This document shows, piece by piece, positions 2,854 through 59,200 of a stretch of 64,000 nucleotides of DNA. Positions within the stretch are counted from its first letter, which is position 1. Every line of letters begins with the position of its first letter. The stretch comes from an uncultured Rhodospirillales bacterium (lineage in GTDB: Bacteria; Pseudomonadota; Alphaproteobacteria; ATCC43930; CGMCC-115725): assembly GCA_903828515.1 (NCBI GenBank), contig CAIKMD010000006.1, positions 434,001 to 498,000 of the forward strand. Reading direction: 5' to 3'. The notes under the pieces are model-generated. The model worked only from the letters and a program-made list of their open reading frames with translations, searched no databases and was not told the DNA's origin. Made by a program: the position numbers and the translations under genes.

Positions 2854-2939
2854 GTCATGCCCGGCCTCGTGCCGGGCATCCACGTCTTAGGGGCGTTGAA
2901 AGAAAGTCGTGGATGGCCGGGTCGAGCCCGGCCATGACG
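2854..2939. repeat. Intergenic palindromic repeat, class C copy 1
   Basis: GTCATGCCCGGC...GCCGGGCATCCACG is followed by GTGGATGGCCGGG...CCCGGCCATGAC. There are two nested hairpins plus an overall dyad. It lies between convergent genes ending at 2827 and 2966 and may also act as a bidirectional terminator. A second copy in inverted orientation is at 9565-9652. Confidence 0.85.
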
Positions 2940-5571: not shown

Positions 5572-5682
5572 CCCCCTCCCCTTGAGGGAGGGGTTAGGGG
5601 AGGGGTGTGCAGGCACGATGCTTGCTTACATCGTGGCGGGGTTACCCCCCACCCCAACCCTCCCCCTCAAGGGGGGAGGGAG
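5572..5682. repeat. Intergenic palindromic repeat, class D
   Basis: The left arm CCCCTCCCCTTGAGGGAGGGG and the right arm CCCTCCCCCTCAAGGGGGGAGGG are each self-complementary and also complementary to each other around a ~35-base loop. It sits between convergent genes and could terminate transcription from both sides. Confidence 0.8.
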
Positions 5683-8310: not shown

Positions 8311-8382
8311 CACCACGGAGACACGGAGGGCACGGAGAAGGGAAGAAAGATTTCTTCTCCGTGCCCTCCGTGTCTCCGTGGT
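8311..8382. repeat. Intergenic palindromic repeat, class B copy 2
   Basis: CACCACGGAGACACGGAGGG and its mirror CCCTCCGTGTCTCCGTGGT form a long perfect stem. It follows class A copy 2 by 39 bases, as in the 161-361 unit. Confidence 0.85.
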
Positions 8383-9564: not shown

Positions 9565-9652
9565 CGTCATGGCCGGGCTTGACCCGGCCATCCACGACTT
9601 TTGATCGCGTACCGGTAAGACGTGGATGCCCGGCACAAGGCCGGGCATGACG
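9565..9652. repeat. Intergenic palindromic repeat, class C copy 2 (inverted relative to copy 1)
   Basis: CGTCATGGCCGGGCTTGACC through GGCCGGGCATGACG. It is the reverse complement of the 2854-2939 element with variable loop bases. It lies between convergent genes ending at 9533 and 9663. Confidence 0.85.
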
Positions 9653-43648: not shown

Positions 43649-45979
43649 GTGACGAAAACACCTTGTTGCACGTGGCAGACCCGAGATCGCGCGCGGTTCG
43701 TCCGCAAAAGCGCGGTATTCCTTCTCTTTCTCGGCGTGGCCATCGCGGGTGGAAGCAACGCCGGTTTCGCCCAGCAAGTCATCAACGGCAACGTTCCCAC
43801 GCCGATCGACGCCACCGGCGTGACCGGCGGCGTGTCGATGACCGGCCAGGGCGGCGGCGGCACGCTGATCGTCGGGACCGTCGGCGGACCCGAGACGGAT
43901 ATCTTTACCAACAATTCGGCGGGCGGGGTGGTGGTCAATCCCCTGCTTCCGGCGGTGCAGACCGATGTCTCGAGTCAGTCGAACATCACGTTCAACAGCA
44001 GTTCGACGGTGTTCGGCACGATCGGCGTCACCCCGCTGGCCAGCCCGATCTTTCTCAATCTTTCGGGCGGCAATACGGGATCGACGGTCAATTTTCAGGG
44101 CAATGTCGACGCGACCCAATTCCTGGTCGGCGGCACCGGCACTGTCAACTTCAACAGCGGCTCGACCAACAACGTCACCAATGTGATCTACGGCGCCGAT
44201 GGCACGATCGGCCTCGGGGTGAATACGACGGTGAACGGCGCCCTGACGACAACGGCGGGCGCCAACACCGGCACGCTGTCGCTTGCCGGCGGCAGCGTCT
44301 TCAACGGCGCGGTCGGCGGCGCGATCGGATTGCGGGCGATCAACGTCGTCGGCGGCAGTAATATCGCCGGCGTGAGCGCGAATATCAGCGGCGCGGTGGA
44401 TGCGTTCTCGTTCGCGCTCGGCACCAACACGTTGAATATCGGCGGCGCGCTGAACATCGCCAATCAGGGACCGACCGGTACGATCTCGACGACGCTGTCC
44501 ACCCCGACGGTGTTCGGCCACATCATCGCCGGCGGCAGCACGAGTCTCGGGCCTCTCACCATCAACGTCACTGTTCCGGCGACCGCGATCTTCCCGGTGG
44601 GAACCGATTTCACCATCGTCCAGTCGGGCGGCACCGGCACGTCGGGTATCGTCGCGACGGTGAACACGACCAACCCGCTGTATCGTTTCGCCCAGGTACC
44701 AACGCCCGGGAGTGTCACGCCGGGCCCCACCAACGCCACCGGCTTCGTCGTCATCACGACGCTGAGCACGCCGTTGCAGGCCGCGTCGGCGCCGCCGGCC
44801 GGCTTCATTCTGCCACGGGCCGCGCCGCTCGCCGCCATCATCGGAACGGCGCTCGTCACCGCAACCCAGACGCCCGACATCATCGTGGTCGAGAACGCGC
44901 TCAATGCCTTCACCGACCCGGCTGCCGTCGTCAACGCCGAGAAACAGCTTGCGCCGTCGGCCTCGGACGTGGCGGCGGGACTGGTGACCTTCCAGGGCAC
45001 GCGTCAGTTCCAGGATCTGTGGCTCGCGCGCCTCGACGACGTCATGTGCGGCGACGTCAACGCGCTCAAGCACGACGACGCGAATTCGATTTGCCGCAAG
45101 AACGAGCCGACCAGCGGCTGGTGGGTGAAAAGCTTCGGCTATTTCGGCAGCCAGGGCCAGCAGGGCGTGTTCGACGGCTTCGAATCGCGCACGCTCGGCA
45201 CCATGATCGCCTATGACGCGCCGCTGCCGGGCCTGCGCGACACCAGCCTCGGTCTCGAGACGCGTGTCGGCCTCGGCATCGGCTACGCGCAGACGACGAT
45301 CAACGACAAGGGTCTCGCCGACAGCACGAATTCCAATACCTATCGGGCGACGGCCTATATCAGCCACGACCACGGCCCGTGGTTCATCGACGGCGACGTG
45401 TCGTTCGGGTGGAGCGAATATTCCGGCGCGCGGAACATTTCGTTTCCCGGCGTGAGCCGCCGGGCGCAGGCCAATTACAGCGGCCAGGATTACACCGCGT
45501 TCGGCATCACCGGCATGCATCTTCCGATGGGCGCCGGCGTCACGGTGACGCCGTTCGCGTCGCTGCAATACACAAGGATGAATCTCGCCGGCTATACCGA
45601 GAGCGGCGCCGGCGATATCAGCCTCAAGGTGAACGCACAGCGATACGATTTCCTCGAGTCAGGCCTCGGTGGGAAGGTGACGCGGCCGTTTGCCGGTTCC
45701 GGCGGGAGCTATGTTCCCGAGGGGCATTTCAAATGGCTGCACGACCTTGCCAACCCGAAGCTGGCCAACACCGCGTCGTTCACCGGCGGGTCGCCGCAAT
45801 TCAGCACGCCGGGCCTGAAAAACTCACCCGACACGTTCAATCTCGGCGCCGGACTGACCTTCCTCACCTGTTCGTGCAGCGCGAACAACTGGTCGGTCGA
45901 GGCCGTCTATGATTATTACTGGCGCCCCGACAACTACTCGGCGCATCAGGGAACCGTGAAGTTCAGCGCCCGCTTCTAG
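43649..45979 (+). CDS. Autotransporter with outer-membrane beta-barrel
   Basis: Protein of 776 residues starting at GTG 43649 (GGGGGAA 5 bases upstream). The signal peptide is long and hydrophobic (SAVFLLFLGVAIAGGSNAGF). Residues ~50-400 are a Gly/Asn/Thr-rich repetitive passenger of beta-helix type. Residues ~490-776 are the barrel: TSGWWVKSFGYFGSQGQQ, GYAQTTIN, many aromatic strands, and a final SARF. The passenger has no visible enzyme motif, so an adhesin-like or surface-display role is the best guess. Codon use and GC fit the neighbours. Confidence 0.82.
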   Translation: MTKTPCCTWQTRDRARFVRKSAVFLLFLGVAIAGGSNAGFAQQVINGNVPTPIDATGVTGGVSMTGQGGGGTLIVGTVGGPETDIFTNNSAGGVVVNPLLPAVQTDVSSQSNITFNSSSTVFGTIGVTPLASPIFLNLSGGNTGSTVNFQGNVDATQFLVGGTGTVNFNSGSTNNVTNVIYGADGTIGLGVNTTVNGALTTTAGANTGTLSLAGGSVFNGAVGGAIGLRAINVVGGSNIAGVSANISGAVDAFSFALGTNTLNIGGALNIANQGPTGTISTTLSTPTVFGHIIAGGSTSLGPLTINVTVPATAIFPVGTDFTIVQSGGTGTSGIVATVNTTNPLYRFAQVPTPGSVTPGPTNATGFVVITTLSTPLQAASAPPAGFILPRAAPLAAIIGTALVTATQTPDIIVVENALNAFTDPAAVVNAEKQLAPSASDVAAGLVTFQGTRQFQDLWLARLDDVMCGDVNALKHDDANSICRKNEPTSGWWVKSFGYFGSQGQQGVFDGFESRTLGTMIAYDAPLPGLRDTSLGLETRVGLGIGYAQTTINDKGLADSTNSNTYRATAYISHDHGPWFIDGDVSFGWSEYSGARNISFPGVSRRAQANYSGQDYTAFGITGMHLPMGAGVTVTPFASLQYTRMNLAGYTESGAGDISLKVNAQRYDFLESGLGGKVTRPFAGSGGSYVPEGHFKWLHDLANPKLANTASFTGGSPQFSTPGLKNSPDTFNLGAGLTFLTCSCSANNWSVEAVYDYYWRPDNYSAHQGTVKFSARF

Positions 45980-53165: not shown

Positions 53166-53259
53166 CTCACACCGAAAGCTGATACGTCTCCGGCCGCGCG
53201 TCGATCGTGTCGGCGACCGCCTTTGCCCAATCCGGCGTGTCGCGCGGCAGGAGGCAGGA
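53166..53259. repeat. 94-bp direct repeat, left copy: duplicated 3' end of the Rieske gene
   Basis: 93 of 94 bases match 57128-57221 in the same orientation; the one difference is T at 53224 against C at 57186. It is the remnant of the Rieske oxygenase gene that the island cut off, and marks the left edge of the island. Confidence 0.95.
53167..53259 (-). pseudogene. Severed 3' end of the Rieske oxygenase gene
   Basis: The minus strand still encodes SCLLPRDTPDWAKAVADTID and the rest of the C-terminal tail up to the stop, as in the intact gene at 57129-58409. The upstream part of that gene is absent here. The frame continues into island DNA as a chimeric open frame up to 53520, without start signals, and is not counted as a gene. 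Confidence 0.85.
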
Positions 53260-53314
53260 AATCAGAGCTACCGATACCGTCTTACTGAATAAGTTCGAGA
53301 TGCCAAATATCAAA

Positions 53315-53962
53315 TTACAGTTCAGAAAACATTGTATCTTTTTCGGCCAAGAGATAATCGAATAACTGTAAGAATGCCTTCGTAGATTGCGACAACAGCA
53401 TTTTTTCCTGAATTCCGCCAGTCCCTGCCGCAATCTCAGAAAACGACCTCCCACTACCTCCATCCGGGCAAAAGATCGTATCCCAGTAAAAGTCGCGTCC
53501 ACCGCGAGGCCCATCCGCAAGTACGCCTACGGTATCGCCTACAAATGTCACGACTCGTTTGCCATTACAGTAGGCAATTAGGCATCGCGCGATAGCTTGC
53601 TCCCCAGCCCACTCGACGCTCTTCACAAATCCGACCGGTCCGACAGCGTCCCACATAGGTTGCGTTAAGCCACCCGGAAAATTTTGATCCTTAAATTTTT
53701 CTAAAATGAGCGCCGCGTGTTCGACGACGCAGGGCGCCATTATTTGTCGATACGCCGACATAACTTTATGCCGAACCATCGTCTCGAGATCCCGCTCTAG
53801 CGGTTCTGCCAAAATTGCATCATGAAACTCAAATTCAAAGGCAGACCGAACAGACATGGCGGGATGGGTACCGTTCGCAGGGAGCGTCATGTCCAAAAGC
53901 GTAAGGACTTCCTCACGCTTGAACAAACTTGACGTGGCATATCTGATTTTTTTTGTCCTCAT
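53315..53962 (-). CDS. HAM1/RdgB-family protein with degenerate catalytic and base-recognition motifs; proposed nucleotide sensor
   Basis: Protein of 215 residues with the HAM1 (non-canonical purine NTP pyrophosphatase) skeleton: ATSSLFKREE (residues 9-18, like ATxNxxKxxE), VVEHAAL (79-85), FPGGLTQPMW, GDTVGVLADGPRGGRDF then YWDTIF (142-164), SFSEI (173-177) and SQSTKA (191-196). In active enzymes 79-85 reads EDSGL or DDSGL and 191-193 is SHR; here Asp is His82 and HR is Gln192-Ser193. Catalysis and inosine reading are therefore probably lost. Last gene of the operon, overlapping the SIR2 stop by one base. Adjacent HAM1 and SIR2 genes recall KomB/KomC of Kongming, where HAM1 binds the messenger. 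Family assignment from motifs; role is inference. Confidence 0.75.
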   Translation of the reverse strand: MRTKKIRYATSSLFKREEVLTLLDMTLPANGTHPAMSVRSAFEFEFHDAILAEPLERDLETMVRHKVMSAYRQIMAPCVVEHAALILEKFKDQNFPGGLTQPMWDAVGPVGFVKSVEWAGEQAIARCLIAYCNGKRVVTFVGDTVGVLADGPRGGRDFYWDTIFCPDGGSGRSFSEIAAGTGGIQEKMLLSQSTKAFLQLFDYLLAEKDTMFSEL

Positions 53963-54801
53963 CAGAGCACCATTTGAGCGAGGACATCGGCAATTTCTTT
54001 GCCAAGTTTTTCTCCGGAAACCGGTATCACATCGATACGACGCGAATTAAATAACTGGGTCTCAAAATCCGAAGGATTAGGGTAGATGATGTAAGCGCGT
54101 TTGCCCGCAAACGATTGCGGTAAATCCCGAAAATGATCCGTTACCAGCCGAAACAAGTAAGCGACGTTAGCGTCGCGAAAACTATATCCGATAAAGAGTA
54201 ACGCTCGACCCAGGATATCTGATCTAAGCTTCAGGTCGAGAGGGCCCTCTAACCTCATTCGCCTTTCGTAATCTGATTCTGAGAGGACCATTGTTTCTGG
54301 TCGTGCGAAATCCCCATGAAACTTTACGACCTGAGTATCAGTGGGCAAATTGCTGAGGTCATGCTCTGAACGCACTGCAGTAATCGATCGGCCGCTTAGC
54401 TTTAGCCGTCGCTCGAGGAAATCATCATAATTTGTGGTATAAAAAAGATGACAATCTTTTAGTCCAACGAGCGCGGTCAGAAGCTCCGCTCTTTCAAGGT
54501 CGGCGTCCGAAGGGTTCATTCGTTGTACGAGCCAGTTGATCAAAGGCTGGATCGTGTCTTCTTTCGTTCGAAGGTATTCAATAATCTGCAGGTCAGTCCC
54601 TCGAATTCTCAGTAATTCAGGATCATCCACGCCAAGCAAATGAGCCGCTTGATCGACGAGTTCTCTCCATGAGGGACCTCTAATTGTTTTTCCATCAGTT
54701 GACCACGTAACCGACATTGAGGCGCCGGCTCCAACGAAAGGAATGACCCTTCCTTCACGATAGAGTCTGCGGAGTTCGGTTGGACAGGCAGGTGTGCTCA
54801 T
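53962..54801 (-). CDS. SIR2-like protein, proposed NAD+-consuming effector
   Basis: Protein of 279 residues, all one SIR2 domain. Nucleotide-binding FVGAGAS (residues 22-28), TTNYDDFLE (122-130; Asn for ribose), KFHGDF (160-165; catalytic His162) and GYSFRDANV (205-213) are all intact. Free-standing SIR2 domains of this kind in defence systems hydrolyse NAD+ when triggered. No transmembrane part. It overlaps the methyltransferase gene by 4 bases and the HAM1-like gene by 1 base; the coupling to HAM1 suggests a stoichiometric complex. Family is secure; NADase activity is known for relatives and inferred here. Confidence 0.88.
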   Translation of the reverse strand: MSTPACPTELRRLYREGRVIPFVGAGASMSVTWSTDGKTIRGPSWRELVDQAAHLLGVDDPELLRIRGTDLQIIEYLRTKEDTIQPLINWLVQRMNPSDADLERAELLTALVGLKDCHLFYTTNYDDFLERRLKLSGRSITAVRSEHDLSNLPTDTQVVKFHGDFARPETMVLSESDYERRMRLEGPLDLKLRSDILGRALLFIGYSFRDANVAYLFRLVTDHFRDLPQSFAGKRAYIIYPNPSDFETQLFNSRRIDVIPVSGEKLGKEIADVLAQMVL

Positions 54802-55412
54802 TGTGGCTTCCGTGCAATGAATCGCGTCATTGAGTGCGAGTGAGGTATTAGGTTATGTGGATGTACTTCATGTAAATCAGTGTCGGACGAACGCAGAATT
54901 TCCCAGCCGTCATAGAACTTCACATATTGACTGTGACTAATCAGGCAGGGGTTAAATCCGGGATGGGCAGTCAAATCCTGTGCCCGAGAGTTAAACGCAC
55001 AAACGATGTGAAGTCCGCCTAAACGTGTCGCGTTCTGTAGTCGTTGAATTACCTTGGCTATATTTTGTTCACTATCCAGGCAATGAAAAAAGCCGTAAGC
55101 AATAACTAAATCAAATTTTTCAATTCCGTAGTCCGCCTCTCCGACATCACAACACTGCCAGTCTATGGGGTCGTGGGGGAAAGCATGCCGTCCATTCGCT
55201 AGCGCTAGCTCCGAACAATCGACGGCAACAACTTTGGCGCCTCGGCCGGCGACCGCGTGGGCGTTTTTTCCCTCTCCACAGCCGGCATCTAAAACAGTAA
55301 GTCCAGATAGCGATGGCAACAATGTGAATAGCTCAACAATCAAGCTGCCCGGCTCCTGTCCCCAGAAACAGGGGCAGCTTGCGTATCCGTTGTCGTATCC
55401 GCCGTTAGTCAC
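54798..55412 (-). CDS. Class I SAM-dependent methyltransferase, TehB-like
   Basis: Protein of 204 residues. Motif I VLDAGCGEGKNA (residues 40-51), acidic ribose site VVAVD with Asp65, motif II region CCDVGEADY (87-95) and FDLVIAYGFFHCLD (100-113) are all present. The FWGQEPGSLIVELF start is like tellurite/thiopurine methyltransferases, which act on small molecules. No DNA methyltransferase catalytic motif (DPPY/NPPY or PCQ) is visible, so it is probably not a restriction methylase. It lies between the NUDIX-kinase fusion (8-base overlap) and SIR2 (4-base overlap). I infer a small-molecule or nucleotide substrate. Confidence 0.82.
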   Translation of the reverse strand: MTNGGYDNGYASCPCFWGQEPGSLIVELFTLLPSLSGLTVLDAGCGEGKNAHAVAGRGAKVVAVDCSELALANGRHAFPHDPIDWQCCDVGEADYGIEKFDLVIAYGFFHCLDSEQNIAKVIQRLQNATRLGGLHIVCAFNSRAQDLTAHPGFNPCLISHSQYVKFYDGWEILRSSDTDLHEVHPHNLIPHSHSMTRFIARKPQ

Positions 55413-57006
55413 TAGGCGACCTCCAATCTCGTAGTTGGAGCTCCTCAGCCATCCGCATGAGCGCGCCGTTAAAATTGGCGACGCCCATCCAGTTGTAAAG
55501 CACTGCGTCTGCGGCAGCCATCAGATGAGGAATTTCACGCTCCGTAGAGCCATTCATAATCTCAAGAAAATTGTGAGCTGTGATCGTATTTTTTCCCTTG
55601 TATTCACGATCTTTATAAAATTGAAATGCGGTGTCGGGTGCGGCATAAACGAACACGACAGCTACGGGAACATCCGAAAAGTTCTTGATAGCTTCTAGCG
55701 TGCTTAGCTGTCTAACGCCGTCTATTACCACGCGTGACGCGTCTAGTTCACTCGCTGCACGCAAGAGAGCTTTGGCCAATCTCTCGGGTCCTTTATCCGT
55801 CGAGATAAATTTCCACGCCAGCTTCTGAAACTGTTTGCGCGATGTTCCAGGTATGGGCCGGACTTTCAGTAATTTCGCGAGAATTCGTCCACTGTTAACC
55901 TCAGCATATCCGAGGCGCTCGGAAAAATATTTTGTTGCGAGTGATTTGCCAGAGCCGATGCTGCCGACCACAACTACAATATGCGCCTTTTGGAAGGGAC
56001 GTTTCCGGAATACTTTGAATGTTGGTTGGGCGCGAACGACTTCCGGAAAAAATTGTCTCCAACAAAGCTGCGACCAATATTCGTATTCATTCAAATCGAT
56101 AACGTCACGCTTCGTATCAAGCCAACGCAATTGGTTGACCGAGGCCTCCCCACGAGAAACTTTCTTCCATGTATCCCAATCCTTGATCTTATATCTAATT
56201 ACGATAGCGACGTGCCTGCGTCCTACCTCGCTCGAGTCATCATTGATCACGCCCAAAAGTTGAAGTCGTGAGGTATCGCGATTTCGAACCAACTTGTTAC
56301 CCGACAGTTCTTCATTCAACTCCCGAATTGCGTTCTCTATCACACCGGCGTCTTTATACGAGAACAACGTTCGATCTTCTTCCGTTACATGGCCTCCGAA
56401 GCCAATGCAAAAGCTGCCCCGCAAAAACTCTGCGACTCGTGAGAAACTGCCTCGCTTAAATGCGAGGACTTGCGATCCACATGTTACGATTACGTAAGTG
56501 ACGACCTGCTTATATCCGTCAGCACTTTCGGCCATCGTCCGTGGCATGTACTCAAGAGGGCCACGCGTGAGCCTTCGGATCAATTGTCCACGGTCAAGTC
56601 GCAACCCTTGAAATTTCAATATGCTTTGAAAGCGGTGTTGTGGGAGGACAAGGACGTGCTCGTTCGGTGGCGGTGGCTGCCTTCTCCGTGCCGTATAGAC
56701 CTTGAATAAGGGGCGATCTGCATGAAAGGTTGGCACGGCATCGTAATTCGTGTGGGGTATTAGTAAGTCTCGTAGGTAAAACTTCCCCTTCGCAGTTCGT
56801 ACAAAGACTGAATTGTCTTCATTTTTTATAATTTCGATACTGAGGCGAGCCTGAAGGGATTTTTGTGGTGTTCGACTATTCATATTATCGGAAAACAGAT
56901 CACTCTCTTGGGCAAGCGTAATGATCTCGGCGGCAGAGAGTGGCCGAGCGTGCCTTCGTATTATTTGCTCTGCAGCCCACAAGTAGGTGAGTCGATCTGG
57001 CGCCAT
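55405..57006 (-). CDS. HARE-HTH, NUDIX and P-loop nucleotide-kinase-like fusion protein
   Basis: Protein of 533 residues and first gene of the operon. Residues 1-85: HARE-HTH winged helix (TYLWAAEQIIRRHARPLSAA, FYLRDLL). Residues ~165-320: NUDIX domain with GGHVTEED at 204-211 and a long insert before RELNEEL at 228-234, the metal helix. Residues ~340-525: P-loop VVVVGSIGSGKSLATKYF (Walker A 348-355), strand VVIDGVRQ at 426-433 and a C-terminal helix, like dephospho-CoA or deoxynucleoside-monophosphate kinases. AGGAG lies 4-8 bases upstream of ATG 57006, inside an inverted repeat. HARE-HTH is linked in the literature to modified-DNA systems. The nucleotide substrate is inference. Confidence 0.75.
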   Translation of the reverse strand: MAPDRLTYLWAAEQIIRRHARPLSAAEIITLAQESDLFSDNMNSRTPQKSLQARLSIEIIKNEDNSVFVRTAKGKFYLRDLLIPHTNYDAVPTFHADRPLFKVYTARRRQPPPPNEHVLVLPQHRFQSILKFQGLRLDRGQLIRRLTRGPLEYMPRTMAESADGYKQVVTYVIVTCGSQVLAFKRGSFSRVAEFLRGSFCIGFGGHVTEEDRTLFSYKDAGVIENAIRELNEELSGNKLVRNRDTSRLQLLGVINDDSSEVGRRHVAIVIRYKIKDWDTWKKVSRGEASVNQLRWLDTKRDVIDLNEYEYWSQLCWRQFFPEVVRAQPTFKVFRKRPFQKAHIVVVVGSIGSGKSLATKYFSERLGYAEVNSGRILAKLLKVRPIPGTSRKQFQKLAWKFISTDKGPERLAKALLRAASELDASRVVIDGVRQLSTLEAIKNFSDVPVAVVFVYAAPDTAFQFYKDREYKGKNTITAHNFLEIMNGSTEREIPHLMAAADAVLYNWMGVANFNGALMRMAEELQLRDWRSPSD

Positions 57007-57007
57007 T

Positions 57008-57033
57008 TAGTCTCCTAATGACATTGGAGACTA
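57008..57033. promoter_or_regulatory. Inverted repeat over the operon's ribosome binding site
   Basis: TAGTCTCC-N10-GGAGACTA, perfect 8-base arms. One arm contains the AGGAG of the first island gene, one base from its start codon. It could be an operator, perhaps for the HARE-HTH domain, or an RNA hairpin hiding the ribosome site. Confidence 0.55.
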
Positions 57034-57056
57034 CAATAACGTAGGTGCAAGTAGCC

Positions 57057-57074
57057 ACAGGGTGGGTGCCCTGT
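57057..57074. promoter_or_regulatory. Second inverted repeat upstream of the island operon
   Basis: ACAGGG-TGGGTG-CCCTGT, perfect 6-base arms, 51 bases before the start codon. It may be a second operator or chance; no clear -35/-10 pair could be fixed around it. Confidence 0.3.
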
Positions 57075-57127
57075 CGCTGAAGAAAGCCAAGCTGCTTAAA
57101 ACTTAACGGATAAAAGCGTCCCCGACT

Positions 57128-57221
57128 CTCACACCGAAAGCTGATACGTCTCCGGCCGCGCGTCGATCGTGTCGGCGACCGCCTTCGCCCAATCCGGCGT
57201 GTCGCGCGGCAGGAGGCAGGA
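57128..57221. repeat. 94-bp direct repeat, right copy, inside the intact Rieske gene
   Basis: It is the last 31 codons of the intact gene, matching 53166-53259 with one mismatch that is synonymous in the protein. Right edge of the island. Confidence 0.95.
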
Positions 57222-58409
57222 GAGCGGGCGCATCCGGTAATTGCGCTTATCGGTCGGCGGGTCCTTGCCTTCTTCGAGCGCGCGCGCGGTCGCCATCAGG
57301 CGGCGGCGCGTGTGCATGATGAGCCCGTCGGTGCTGCCCAGCGATTCGCGCGTGCGGTCGAAACGTGCGCCCATGCTTTCGGTGATCGCGGTGTCCTGGT
57401 CCTGGAAAATCTTGATCCGCTGCCACGGCTGTTTGACCGGCGGGTAATCGGCGGGGGCGTAGCCGTTGCTCTTATTGTGCGCGGCGGTGAACGTGCCGGG
57501 GGTGAGAAGCGAATGCATGCCCCACCCGGTGAGCATGTTCTTCAGTTCGGTATCTTTCAGCGGCCGCACCGGATGCCATGAGAAGGCAAAGCACCAGGTC
57601 TTGTCGTCGTCCGACGGAACCCAGGCATGGCCGCCGAACGGCGCGTCGCCGGGAAAGCCCGGAATGGTGGTGAAGCACGGCAGCATCCATTCGCCGATGC
57701 GCCAATAATGGTTGGCCGGATCGGCGTCGCGCCGCGCGCTGTGCAGGATGCCGCCCGGCACTTGCACGACCTCGATCTTGGGGTTCGGGTCGTCGGCCAT
57801 CCACTTGCCGGATTCGTATTTGCCGTGCGAGGGCGAGGCGTTGATGGTTTCCGTCCCGTGCAGGAAATTGAGATGGCTCGAATCGAGATCGCCCTCCATG
57901 CCCTGCGTCCAATGGCAATCCTGATAGCGCTTCGAGGCATAGACGTGGCTTTCGGGCACCAGGTTCCATTCGAACTCGGGGAAATCCGGTTTCTTGTCCG
58001 GCGGGCCCATATAGGTCCAGATCACGCCGTTGCGGTCGACGCAGGGATAGGCTTTCTGCTGGATGCGGTCGCAGAACCGCGTCTGCGGCGGCTCGTTCGG
58101 CTGGTCGAGGCATTTGCCGTCGACGTCGTATTTCCAGCCGTGATACCAGCACGACAGGCCGCCATTCATGTTCTTGCCGTAATAGAGCGAGGCGCCGCGA
58201 TGCGAACAATGCTCGCCCAAGAGGCCGACGCGGCCGTTGCTGTCGCGGAACCCGATCAGGTTTTCGCTGAGCAGCCGCACGCGCACCGGCGCGCCGTCGG
58301 CTTCGAGTTCGCGCGAGAGCAGCGCCGGGATCCAATAGCGCCGCAACAGGTTGCCCATCGGCGTGCCCGGACCGGTGCGCGAGAGGAGTTCGTGTTCGTC
58401 GCGTCTCAT
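57129..58409 (-). CDS. Rieske non-haem iron oxygenase, large subunit
   Basis: Protein of 426 residues resembling phthalate-4,5-dioxygenase-type oxygenases. The [2Fe-2S] site is Cys68-x-His70 (HCSHRGASL) and Cys87-x2-His90 (SCWYHGWKY). The mononuclear iron site is DLDSSHLNFLH (His179, His184, with bridging Asp176). It needs a reductase that is not in the window. The ATG overlaps the stop of the alpha/beta-hydrolase gene by 4 bases, so hydrolase and oxygenase are one operon. Its last 31 codons are the 94-bp repeat, so the gene stays intact despite the island. Confidence 0.9.
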   Translation of the reverse strand: MRRDEHELLSRTGPGTPMGNLLRRYWIPALLSRELEADGAPVRVRLLSENLIGFRDSNGRVGLLGEHCSHRGASLYYGKNMNGGLSCWYHGWKYDVDGKCLDQPNEPPQTRFCDRIQQKAYPCVDRNGVIWTYMGPPDKKPDFPEFEWNLVPESHVYASKRYQDCHWTQGMEGDLDSSHLNFLHGTETINASPSHGKYESGKWMADDPNPKIEVVQVPGGILHSARRDADPANHYWRIGEWMLPCFTTIPGFPGDAPFGGHAWVPSDDDKTWCFAFSWHPVRPLKDTELKNMLTGWGMHSLLTPGTFTAAHNKSNGYAPADYPPVKQPWQRIKIFQDQDTAITESMGARFDRTRESLGSTDGLIMHTRRRLMATARALEEGKDPPTDKRNYRMRPLSCLLPRDTPDWAKAVADTIDARPETYQLSV

Positions 58410-59200
58410 GTCGGCTCTCCGGGATACAGGCCTAGTTTGGTGAGGAATTCGATGGCGTGGCGGTCGTATTCCCACGGCGCCTCGAGCATCGGCGCATGCG
58501 CCACGTTGTCGATCGCGCGAAGCTCGCAGTTCGGGATGAGTTTCTGGAGGACGAGGGCGCTGGGATAGGAACGGTCTTCCTTGCCGGCGATGATCATCGT
58601 CGGCACCGACATGTCGCGGTAATAGGATTCGGGATGGCGATGGGCGAGGCCCTGATTCATCGCGACGATCGAGGCGAGCGTGCCCGCGTTATTGAGCTCG
58701 ACGATCATGTCGGCGTAATACTGCATCAATGGATTGGCGCGCACCGACGGCGCCAGATGATCCAGCACCTGCTCACGGCGCAGGGGCAGGCCCTCGGTCT
58801 TGTAGCGCTCGACCCATTTGAGGAAGACCTCGTTCGAGGCCGAATAGCCGCAGCCCGAGAGGATCAGCGCCTTGATGCGTTCGGGATGTTGATGCGCCAT
58901 CGCGGTCGCGATTCCGGCGCCCATCGAATTGGCCTGGATGATGAGAGGCCCGTCGCTCACCCGGTCGACCGCTTCCCAGCACGCGCTTGCCTGATCGGCC
59001 GGCGTCACGCCCTCCTGAATCGCGGGCGAGCGGCCATAGCCGGCCACGTCGATCGCGATGGTGCGGAAATGCGCCGAGAAATGCGCGGTCTGAAACAGCC
59101 AGAGCCGGTGATCGTCCGGCGTCGAATGCAGAAACAGCATCGGCAACCCGGTCTTGCCGATCTGCTCGAAATAAAGCGGTCCAGGGACGTGCCGCGCCAT
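58406..59200 (-). CDS. Alpha/beta-hydrolase, catabolic type
   Basis: Protein of 264 residues. LFLHSTPDDHRLWLFQ (oxyanion region after strand 3), nucleophile elbow in IQANSMGAGIATAMA (usual first Gly is Ala), VPTMIIAGKEDRSYPS (acid) and DNVAHAPMLEAPWEY (catalytic His). Similar to ring-cleavage-product and enol-lactone hydrolases. Leads the operon with the Rieske oxygenase (overlap 4 bases), which fits aromatic or ester breakdown: either de-esterification before ring attack or later hydrolysis. Confidence 0.85.
   Translation of the reverse strand: MARHVPGPLYFEQIGKTGLPMLFLHSTPDDHRLWLFQTAHFSAHFRTIAIDVAGYGRSPAIQEGVTPADQASACWEAVDRVSDGPLIIQANSMGAGIATAMAHQHPERIKALILSGCGYSASNEVFLKWVERYKTEGLPLRREQVLDHLAPSVRANPLMQYYADMIVELNNAGTLASIVAMNQGLAHRHPESYYRDMSVPTMIIAGKEDRSYPSALVLQKLIPNCELRAIDNVAHAPMLEAPWEYDRHAIEFLTKLGLYPGEPT

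What the first reader, a model, noticed from the sequence alone, without database searches (positions are those of the whole stretch)
57008..57033. Perfect inverted repeat masks the ribosome site of the defence operon
TAGTCTCC and GGAGACTA around a 10-base loop include the AGGAG of the first gene. Such a hairpin would keep translation low, or serve as the autoregulatory site of the HARE-HTH domain. Defence operons often need silence in uninfected cells.
Basis: partly seen in the sequence, partly recalled or inferred. Interest (0 to 1): 0.5.

Follow-up and report, generated by a model that had tools for sequence, protein, structure and literature searches.

The report
Hairpin hiding a defence operon's start
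A strong RNA hairpin really does cover the start signal of the first gene of a foreign four-gene bacterial cassette, but its relatives do not share it; the cassette itself looks like a cousin of a known immune system that shuts down infected cells by destroying NAD.

Summary
It is unusual (0 of 200 own-genome gene starts have as low a fold z-score; 2 of 200 have SD and AUG as buried), but the energy to open the start is ordinary. It is not conserved: none of 15 remote homologous starts has it, their leaders do not align, and in some homologs gene 1 is not first in, or lies outside, the operon. No close homolog was found, so short-range conservation could not be tested. A lineage-specific damper on translation is the best reading; HARE-HTH autoregulation is unsupported. 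The more interesting object is the operon: a foreign cassette (49% G+C in a 63% window) encoding HARE-HTH/NUDIX-like/NMP-kinase-like, methyltransferase, SIR2 and HAM1-like proteins. SIR2 and HAM1 match KomC and KomB of Kongming best among solved structures, but the SIR2s form a separate 100/100 group, no deaminase is present, and the sensor's C-terminal motif differs in 18 of 18 rows, which suggests a messenger other than dITP.

The parts
57008..57033 (-). Core inverted repeat: 8-bp perfect stem, 10-nt loop; 3' arm holds GGAG
57001..57041 (-). Extended stem (15 bp, one bulged G) over SD, spacer, AUG and codon 2
   Evidence: RNA fold -17.4 kcal/mol
57053..57078 (-). Second leader hairpin, 9 of 10 pairs, 6-nt loop; role unknown
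57031..57090 (-). Open frame of 19 codons from TTG whose TAG stop is the first three bases of the 5' arm; no SD seen; possible leader peptide, speculative
55405..57006 (-). Gene 1: HARE-HTH (7-81) + NUDIX-like + nucleoside-monophosphate-kinase-like protein, 533 aa
   Evidence: HARE-HTH over Pfam cut-off, AAA/kinase models below cut-off, no Pfam NUDIX match; NUDIX and kinase folds; start codon supported by MAP... shared with L021
54798..55412 (-). Gene 2: TehB/TPMT-like SAM methyltransferase, 204 aa
53962..54801 (-). Gene 3: SIR2_2 protein, 279 aa, KomC-like
53315..53962 (-). Gene 4: HAM1-like protein, 215 aa, KomB-like
53166..53259 (.). Left copy of a 94-bp direct repeat of the 3' end of the Rieske gene
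   Evidence: 1 mismatch
57128..57221 (.). Right copy of the 94-bp direct repeat (end of intact Rieske gene 57129-58475)
53260..57127 (.). Inserted cassette between the repeats, 48.9% G+C against 63% in the window

Best explanation
The leader of this operon folds into a hairpin that buries the SD, AUG and second codon of gene 1. It most likely lowers the basal translation of gene 1, and through overlapping genes that of the whole operon, in this lineage only. It is not a conserved regulatory element of the system. The operon it heads is a horizontally acquired, Kongming-like abortive-infection cassette. By inference, gene 1 (NMP-kinase-like and NUDIX-like domains, with a DNA-reading HARE-HTH) and the methyltransferase make or control a modified nucleotide, the HAM1-like protein binds it, and SIR2 then destroys NAD+. 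Shown: the stem sequence, its rarity in this genome, lack of conservation, gene content, homology, foreign composition. Inferred: reduced translation, defence activity, the messenger.
For: 15-bp stem of -17.4 kcal/mol; P(unpaired) 0.028 at the SD and 0.017 at the AUG; 0 of 200 own-genome starts with as low a z-score, 2 of 200 with both sites as buried. Downstream genes overlap by 8, 4 and 1 nt. The cassette is 48.9% G+C in a 63% window; gene 1 has no match at E <= 1e-30 in the 42 other genomes of the order. SIR2 best PDB match KomC 8zsf (E 4e-46), HAM1 best match KomB 8zsg (E 5e-22). All four genes occur together in 16 of the 80 loci (a 17th, L053, has broken copies and is left out).
Against: The opening energy around the start is only at the 78th percentile of own-genome genes, so the net effect on translation could be small. 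No homolog has the structure (0 of 15). A structure of this rank is expected at about 1% of starts (2 of 159; 2 of 200). The transcription start is unknown and no sigma-70-like promoter was found; a start inside the 5' arm would abolish the hairpin. 25 of 58 other HAM1-SIR2 loci also lack a detectable deaminase, so its absence alone does not set this operon apart.
Confidence: 0.45

Rival explanations
1. The repeat is a chance structure without function: one of many inverted repeats in the window that happened to be noticed because it touches an SD.
For: 55 perfect repeats of this class in 64 kb; about 1% of starts carry one over the SD; 0 of 15 homologs have it; homolog leaders fold no better than shuffles (mean z -0.19, sd 0.80, n 15); opening energy ordinary.
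Against: The extended stem reaching the AUG with z -3.11 is matched by 0 of 200 own-genome starts.
Confidence: 0.33
2. A regulated switch: translation of a short leader frame that stops at the first bases of the 5' arm (57090-57031) would place a ribosome on that arm, open the hairpin and couple gene 1 to the state of the ribosome, as in leader-peptide attenuation (recalled comparison), so that the operon opens when translation is disturbed in infection.
For: A 19-codon TTG frame ends in TAG exactly at the 5' arm.
Against: No SD before the TTG by eye; an open frame of that length is common by chance (my estimate); the leaders do not align with those of homologs. No Rfam family matches at E <= 1.
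Confidence: 0.08
3. The dyad is a DNA operator bound by the HARE-HTH of gene 1 or by another dimeric repressor.
For: Perfect dyad in the leader of a gene whose product has a HARE-HTH domain. 4 of 15 homolog leaders hold some stem of 7 or more, against 1.7 expected (P 0.087); those of L024 (7 bp, P 0.013) and L025 (8 bp, 0 of 300 shuffles) are rare for their own leaders.
Against: The dyad is unique in the genome and its arms are absent from homologs. The homologs' stems are unrelated in sequence, and I read that in L029, which follows an rpoD gene, as a likely terminator. HARE-HTH is described as a modified-DNA reader. In 4 of 16 four-gene loci gene 1 is convergent with the rest.
Confidence: 0.08

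Closest known systems
Kongming (KomABC) anti-phage system
   Same: Adjacent HAM1-like and SIR2 genes; closest solved structures are KomB (8zsg) and KomC (8zsf). The acidic pair that the own-genome housekeeping RdgB has (SDDSGL) is replaced in both (EH in 18 of 18 new-type rows; EH or EQ in 8 of 8 Kongming-type rows).
   Different: No adenosine deaminase in the cassette or the new-type loci; a methyltransferase and a HARE-HTH/NUDIX-like/kinase-like protein instead; SIR2 before HAM1; SIR2 forms a separate group, 100/100; ISMR of the Kongming-type rows is [LIVF]SQS here.
Second HAM1-SIR2 complex in the PDB (9v0g and six further entries)
   Same: HAM1-like and SIR2-like partners solved together; next-best match after KomB/KomC of both proteins.
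   Different: Weaker match than KomB/KomC; its operon and publication could not be identified with the tools here.
SD-sequestering leader hairpins (general translational control, recalled)
   Same: Stem pairs the SD and start codon.
   Different: No trigger, ligand or conservation shown; no Rfam match at E <= 1.

Membership tests
Kongming (KomABC) | HAM1-like sensor (KomB) | tested here: met
   by sequence only
Kongming (KomABC) | SIR2 NADase (KomC) beside it | tested here: met
   by sequence and position; NADase activity itself not testable
Kongming (KomABC) | Adenosine deaminase KomA making the deaminated nucleotide | tested here: not met
   tblastn (E <= 1e-4) with the L010 deaminase: none in L001/L018 (window cassette) nor in any new-type locus; but 25 of 58 other HAM1-SIR2 loci also show none
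Kongming (KomABC) | Uses a phage kinase (DNK) and host NDK to complete dITP (passages of PMC12948488, PMC12774641) | tested here: inconclusive
   Here an NMP-kinase-like domain is encoded in gene 1; whether it replaces the phage kinase is inference
Kongming (KomABC) | dITP is the activating ligand | not testable with these tools
   Kongming-type SMR / RdgB SHR motif is SQS in 18 of 18 new-type rows; its role in base recognition is recalled
SD-sequestering regulatory hairpin | Stem occludes SD and/or AUG | tested here: met
   predicted fold
SD-sequestering regulatory hairpin | Structure conserved or covarying in homologs | tested here: not met
   0 of 15 remote homologs; no close homologs were found
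SD-sequestering regulatory hairpin | A signal that opens it | not testable with these tools
   no Rfam match at E <= 1

The most novel reading that the evidence does not exclude
The operon is a self-contained, separate branch of nucleotide-triggered SIR2 immunity in which the messenger is not dITP but a modified, perhaps methylated, deoxynucleotide made with the system's own methyltransferase and NMP kinase. The HARE-HTH domain, and in one subclade an attached N6-adenine DNA methyltransferase (4 of 5 loci there against 0 of 12 elsewhere, though confounded by descent), would tie the trigger to the methylation state of host or phage DNA. Phage breakdown of methylated host DNA releasing methyl-dAMP would be one trigger. 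In this host the leader hairpin would hold the lethal system down until infection.
Probability: 0.3. Interest if true: 0.8.

Novelty: new variant of a known kind. Interest (0 to 1): 0.5.

Why it matters
If true, the cassette adds a second kind of non-canonical nucleotide messenger to SIR2 immunity and gives an immediate test (which nucleotide activates the HAM1-SIR2 pair). The hairpin would be one concrete example of how an acquired suicide system is kept quiet at the level of translation in a single host lineage; by itself it is an ordinary kind of element.

Tried and rejected
Conserved leader structure: rejected. 15 homolog leaders were read. Of 20 new-type loci, L022, L036, L039 and L060 are cut before the gene 1 start and L053 is broken. 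No arm of 8 or more lies over an SD in any, but only 5 of the 15 (L026, L028, L032, L037, L038) have a strict SD 4-mer there, so for 10 there was no SD to cover. Mean fold z -0.19. Opening energies run from 3.9 to 19.5 kcal/mol; L037 (19.5) and L025 (14.6) exceed the window's 12.0, and the SD of L037 is buried (0.055 unpaired) while its AUG is not (0.34). Alternative starts in L024, L027, L030, L037 and L038 gave no such arm either. Only the two Bradyrhizobium leaders L027 and L030 align with each other.

Conserved dyads of any sequence: 4 of 15 against 1.7 expected, P 0.087; not convincing.

A regulon operator: the dyad is unique in the genome. Rfam: nothing at E <= 1. Sigma-70 and terminator scan of 56900-57300: nothing.

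Closer homologs: genome contigs and viral-contig scans with gene 1 alone confirmed none. Gene 1: 0 of 60 relatives at E <= 0.001, 0 of 42 other genomes of the order at E <= 1e-30. In the class sample of 385, 6 other genomes have partial matches, the best 29% identical over residues 7-302. 19 plasmid and 6 phage records match parts of gene 1, none 80% of it.

Direct repeats around homologous cassettes: none of 14 or more exact bases within 3 kb in the 16 loci tested, of which L034 has no left flank and L053 is broken. The sister genome G001 lacks the cassette and has about 1.1 kb between the same two neighbours, so it is not a clean empty site; L119, the wider stretch around it, was fetched but not analysed.

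Literature: searches on Kongming/KomABC, HARE-HTH with NUDIX, and SIR2 with HAM1 listed no paper that, by title or start of abstract, describes a methyltransferase/kinase variant. The lists were capped (12 to 30 rows of up to 1,236) and cover open-licence papers only; the original Kongming paper was not seen.

Full report
Observation. The repeat is present exactly as given. It lies in the leader of a minus-strand operon: 3' arm GGAGACTA, then A, then ATG at 57006. CGUUAUU upstream pairs, with two G-U pairs, with AAUGGCG, so SD, spacer, AUG and codon 2 are all paired (57001-57041, -17.4 kcal/mol; core alone -10.3). A second hairpin lies at 57053-57078.

Is it more than chance? Perfect repeats of this class are common: 55 in the window. 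At this place they are rare: 24 of 5000 shuffles of the 45-nt leader contain one. For a baseline I called 299 genes in 400 kb of the same genome with a simple codon-score script that picks the start with the best SD. Of 159 starts with a strict SD 4-mer, 2 have an 8-bp or longer perfect arm over the SD. The energy to open the start region is ordinary (12.0 kcal/mol; mean 9.3, sd 3.7; 35 of 159 at least as high). With a looser SD definition, 0 of 200 starts have a fold z-score as low (-3.11), 14 have the SD as buried, 11 the AUG, 2 both, 6 both under 0.1, and 71 have an equal or lower raw folding energy. So it is a roughly 1-in-100 start in this genome: notable, not extraordinary.

What the operon is. 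Four genes with overlapping ends: a protein with HARE-HTH (over the Pfam cut-off) and kinase-like AAA matches below the cut-off; a TehB/TPMT-like methyltransferase; SIR2_2; HAM1-like. Pfam gave no NUDIX match for gene 1; that domain rests on the sequence match to Tm1382, a putative Nudix hydrolase, and on the model. An AlphaFold model of gene 1 (15-row alignment, mean pLDDT 82.8, pTM 0.70) matches Tm1382 and adenylate-kinase-related nucleoside monophosphate kinases. In PADLOC, gene 1 and the HAM1-like gene have no match at E <= 1; the SIR2 gene matches ThsA and LmuA models, the methyltransferase part of mad2. Among solved structures the SIR2 and HAM1 proteins are closest to KomC and KomB of Kongming, and next to a second HAM1-SIR2 complex, 9v0g. 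In Kongming, KomA, a phage deoxynucleotide kinase and host NDK make dITP, which acts through KomB to switch on KomC NADase (passages of PMC12948488 and PMC12774641).

Homologous operons. A HAM1 profile found 155 relatives in GTDB genomes, of which the best 80 were kept. 17 of the 80 match all four genes; leaving out L053, whose copies are broken, 16 remain (L021, L023-L030, L032-L035, L037-L039; L034 and L039 run into contig ends): 12 in the window's order on one strand and 4 (L025, L027, L030, L034) with gene 1 convergent. L022, L036 and L060 hold parts at contig ends; L031 matches only HAM1. The hosts are Alphaproteobacteria, Lysobacteraceae, Nitrospira, Bryobacterales, Chthonomonas and Nitrospinota. 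Of the other 59 loci, 34 have a deaminase match and 25 show HAM1 and SIR2 without one. L010, L011, L015 and L019 are Kongming-type with deaminase, as are the 5 viral-contig loci; Pantoea L013 shows HAM1 and SIR2 alone. A SIR2 tree of 81 rows puts the window and 17 new-type loci in one group, 100/100; the joining branch is long (1.62) and the program warns about long branches.

Defence neighbourhood. Of 10 large flank proteins from 9 new-type loci scanned against PADLOC, 3 matched at E <= 1e-5: a second SIR2-type protein beside L024's operon, a GajA/AriA-like ATPase beside L025's, and an L029 protein that is the housekeeping sigma factor, so 2 count. This is weak support.

Difference in the sensor. 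In 18 of 18 new-type HAM1 rows the own-genome RdgB pair DD is EH, as in the Kongming-type rows (EH or EQ in 8 of 8), and the C-terminal SHR (RdgB) or SMR (8 of 8) is SQS (one row, L039, was lost to a frame slip in my script). That this arginine reads the base is recalled, so 'not dITP' is an inference.

A DNA methyltransferase partner. In L032, L033 and L037 a D12-class N6-adenine DNA methyltransferase gene lies directly before gene 1 and overlaps its start; in L039 it follows HAM1. That is 4 of 5 loci of one subclade and 0 of 12 of the others including the window (Fisher 0.002, but confounded by common descent), and none of the remaining loci among the 80. It would fit a role for adenine methylation, since HARE-HTH is described as reading modified bases; but one of the two papers says cytosine modifications are more likely. 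In those three loci gene 1 is not the head of its gene cluster. The window's genome has two DNA methyltransferase genes of another class, PF01555.

Conservation test of the hairpin. Of 15 homologous gene 1 starts that could be read, none has an arm over the SD (only 5 have a strict SD 4-mer), none has SD and AUG both below 0.1 unpaired, and the AUG is at least 0.198 unpaired in all 15 (for 5 no SD-like 4-mer was found). Mean leader z is -0.19, sd 0.80. L024 and L025 carry 7- and 8-bp stems of unrelated sequence further upstream, rare for their own leaders, and L037 and L025 need more energy to open than the window's start, so some homologs have structured leaders of their own. Leaders do not align except between L027 and L030. 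The nearest homolog, Methylobacterium sp. E-065 (L021; 53% in gene 1, 71% in SIR2), shares the start MAP... but not the hairpin.

Mobility. The cassette (48.9% G+C in a 63% window) sits between two 94-bp copies (one mismatch) of the 3' end of a Rieske oxygenase gene. The sister species has the Rieske gene and the amidohydrolase about 1.1 kb apart without the cassette. I saw no integrase among the cassette's genes; L028 and L035 have integrase-like genes near theirs. No flanking repeats were found in 16 other loci (two of them uninformative).

Verdict. The hairpin is real and probably reduces translation in this host, but it is not part of the system's conserved design, and nothing here supports HARE-HTH autoregulation. 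The operon is a new variant of the Kongming kind; I did not see it described in the capped listings of open papers searched.

Noticed in passing
window 53166-53259 and 57128-57221: 94-bp direct repeats (one mismatch) of the 3' end of the Rieske gene flank the cassette, with no integrase among its genes; how a 3.9-kb cassette got in this way is unexplained.
   Followed up: partly
L032:2149-3039, L033:2155-2985, L037:2088-3002, L039:2846-3667: D12-class N6-adenine DNA methyltransferase genes tied to the four-gene operon in one subclade only.
   Followed up: partly
L004:373-2004: A relative of the gene 1 kinase domain is fused to what reads like an adenylosuccinate-synthetase-type domain (my reading of the motif, recalled); L006 and L007 have similar matches in 540-549 aa frames that I did not inspect.
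   Followed up: no
L009:4995-5921: A HARE-HTH/NUDIX-like protein without the kinase lies among CHAT-domain, TIR and caspase-family genes on an Agrobacterium plasmid.
   Followed up: no
window 8312-8382: Perfect inverted repeat with 29-nt arms and a 13-nt loop.
   Followed up: no
window 2857-2935, 5658-5680, 9569-9648: Recurrent inverted repeats with 9-nt arms and 5-nt loop, two pairs of them spaced 56-57 nt apart.
   Followed up: no
window 44644-44740: ARAGORN reports a tRNA-like gene with a four-base anticodon (ttgg).
   Followed up: no
window 57031-57090: A 19-codon TTG frame on the minus strand stops exactly on the hairpin's 5' arm.
   Followed up: partly
L013:3959-5310 and 25 of the loci L040-L100: HAM1-SIR2 pairs with no deaminase detected nearby; what makes their messenger is unknown.
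   Followed up: no
PDB 9v0g and six further entries: A second solved HAM1-SIR2 complex exists besides KomB-KomC; its system could not be identified here.
   Followed up: no
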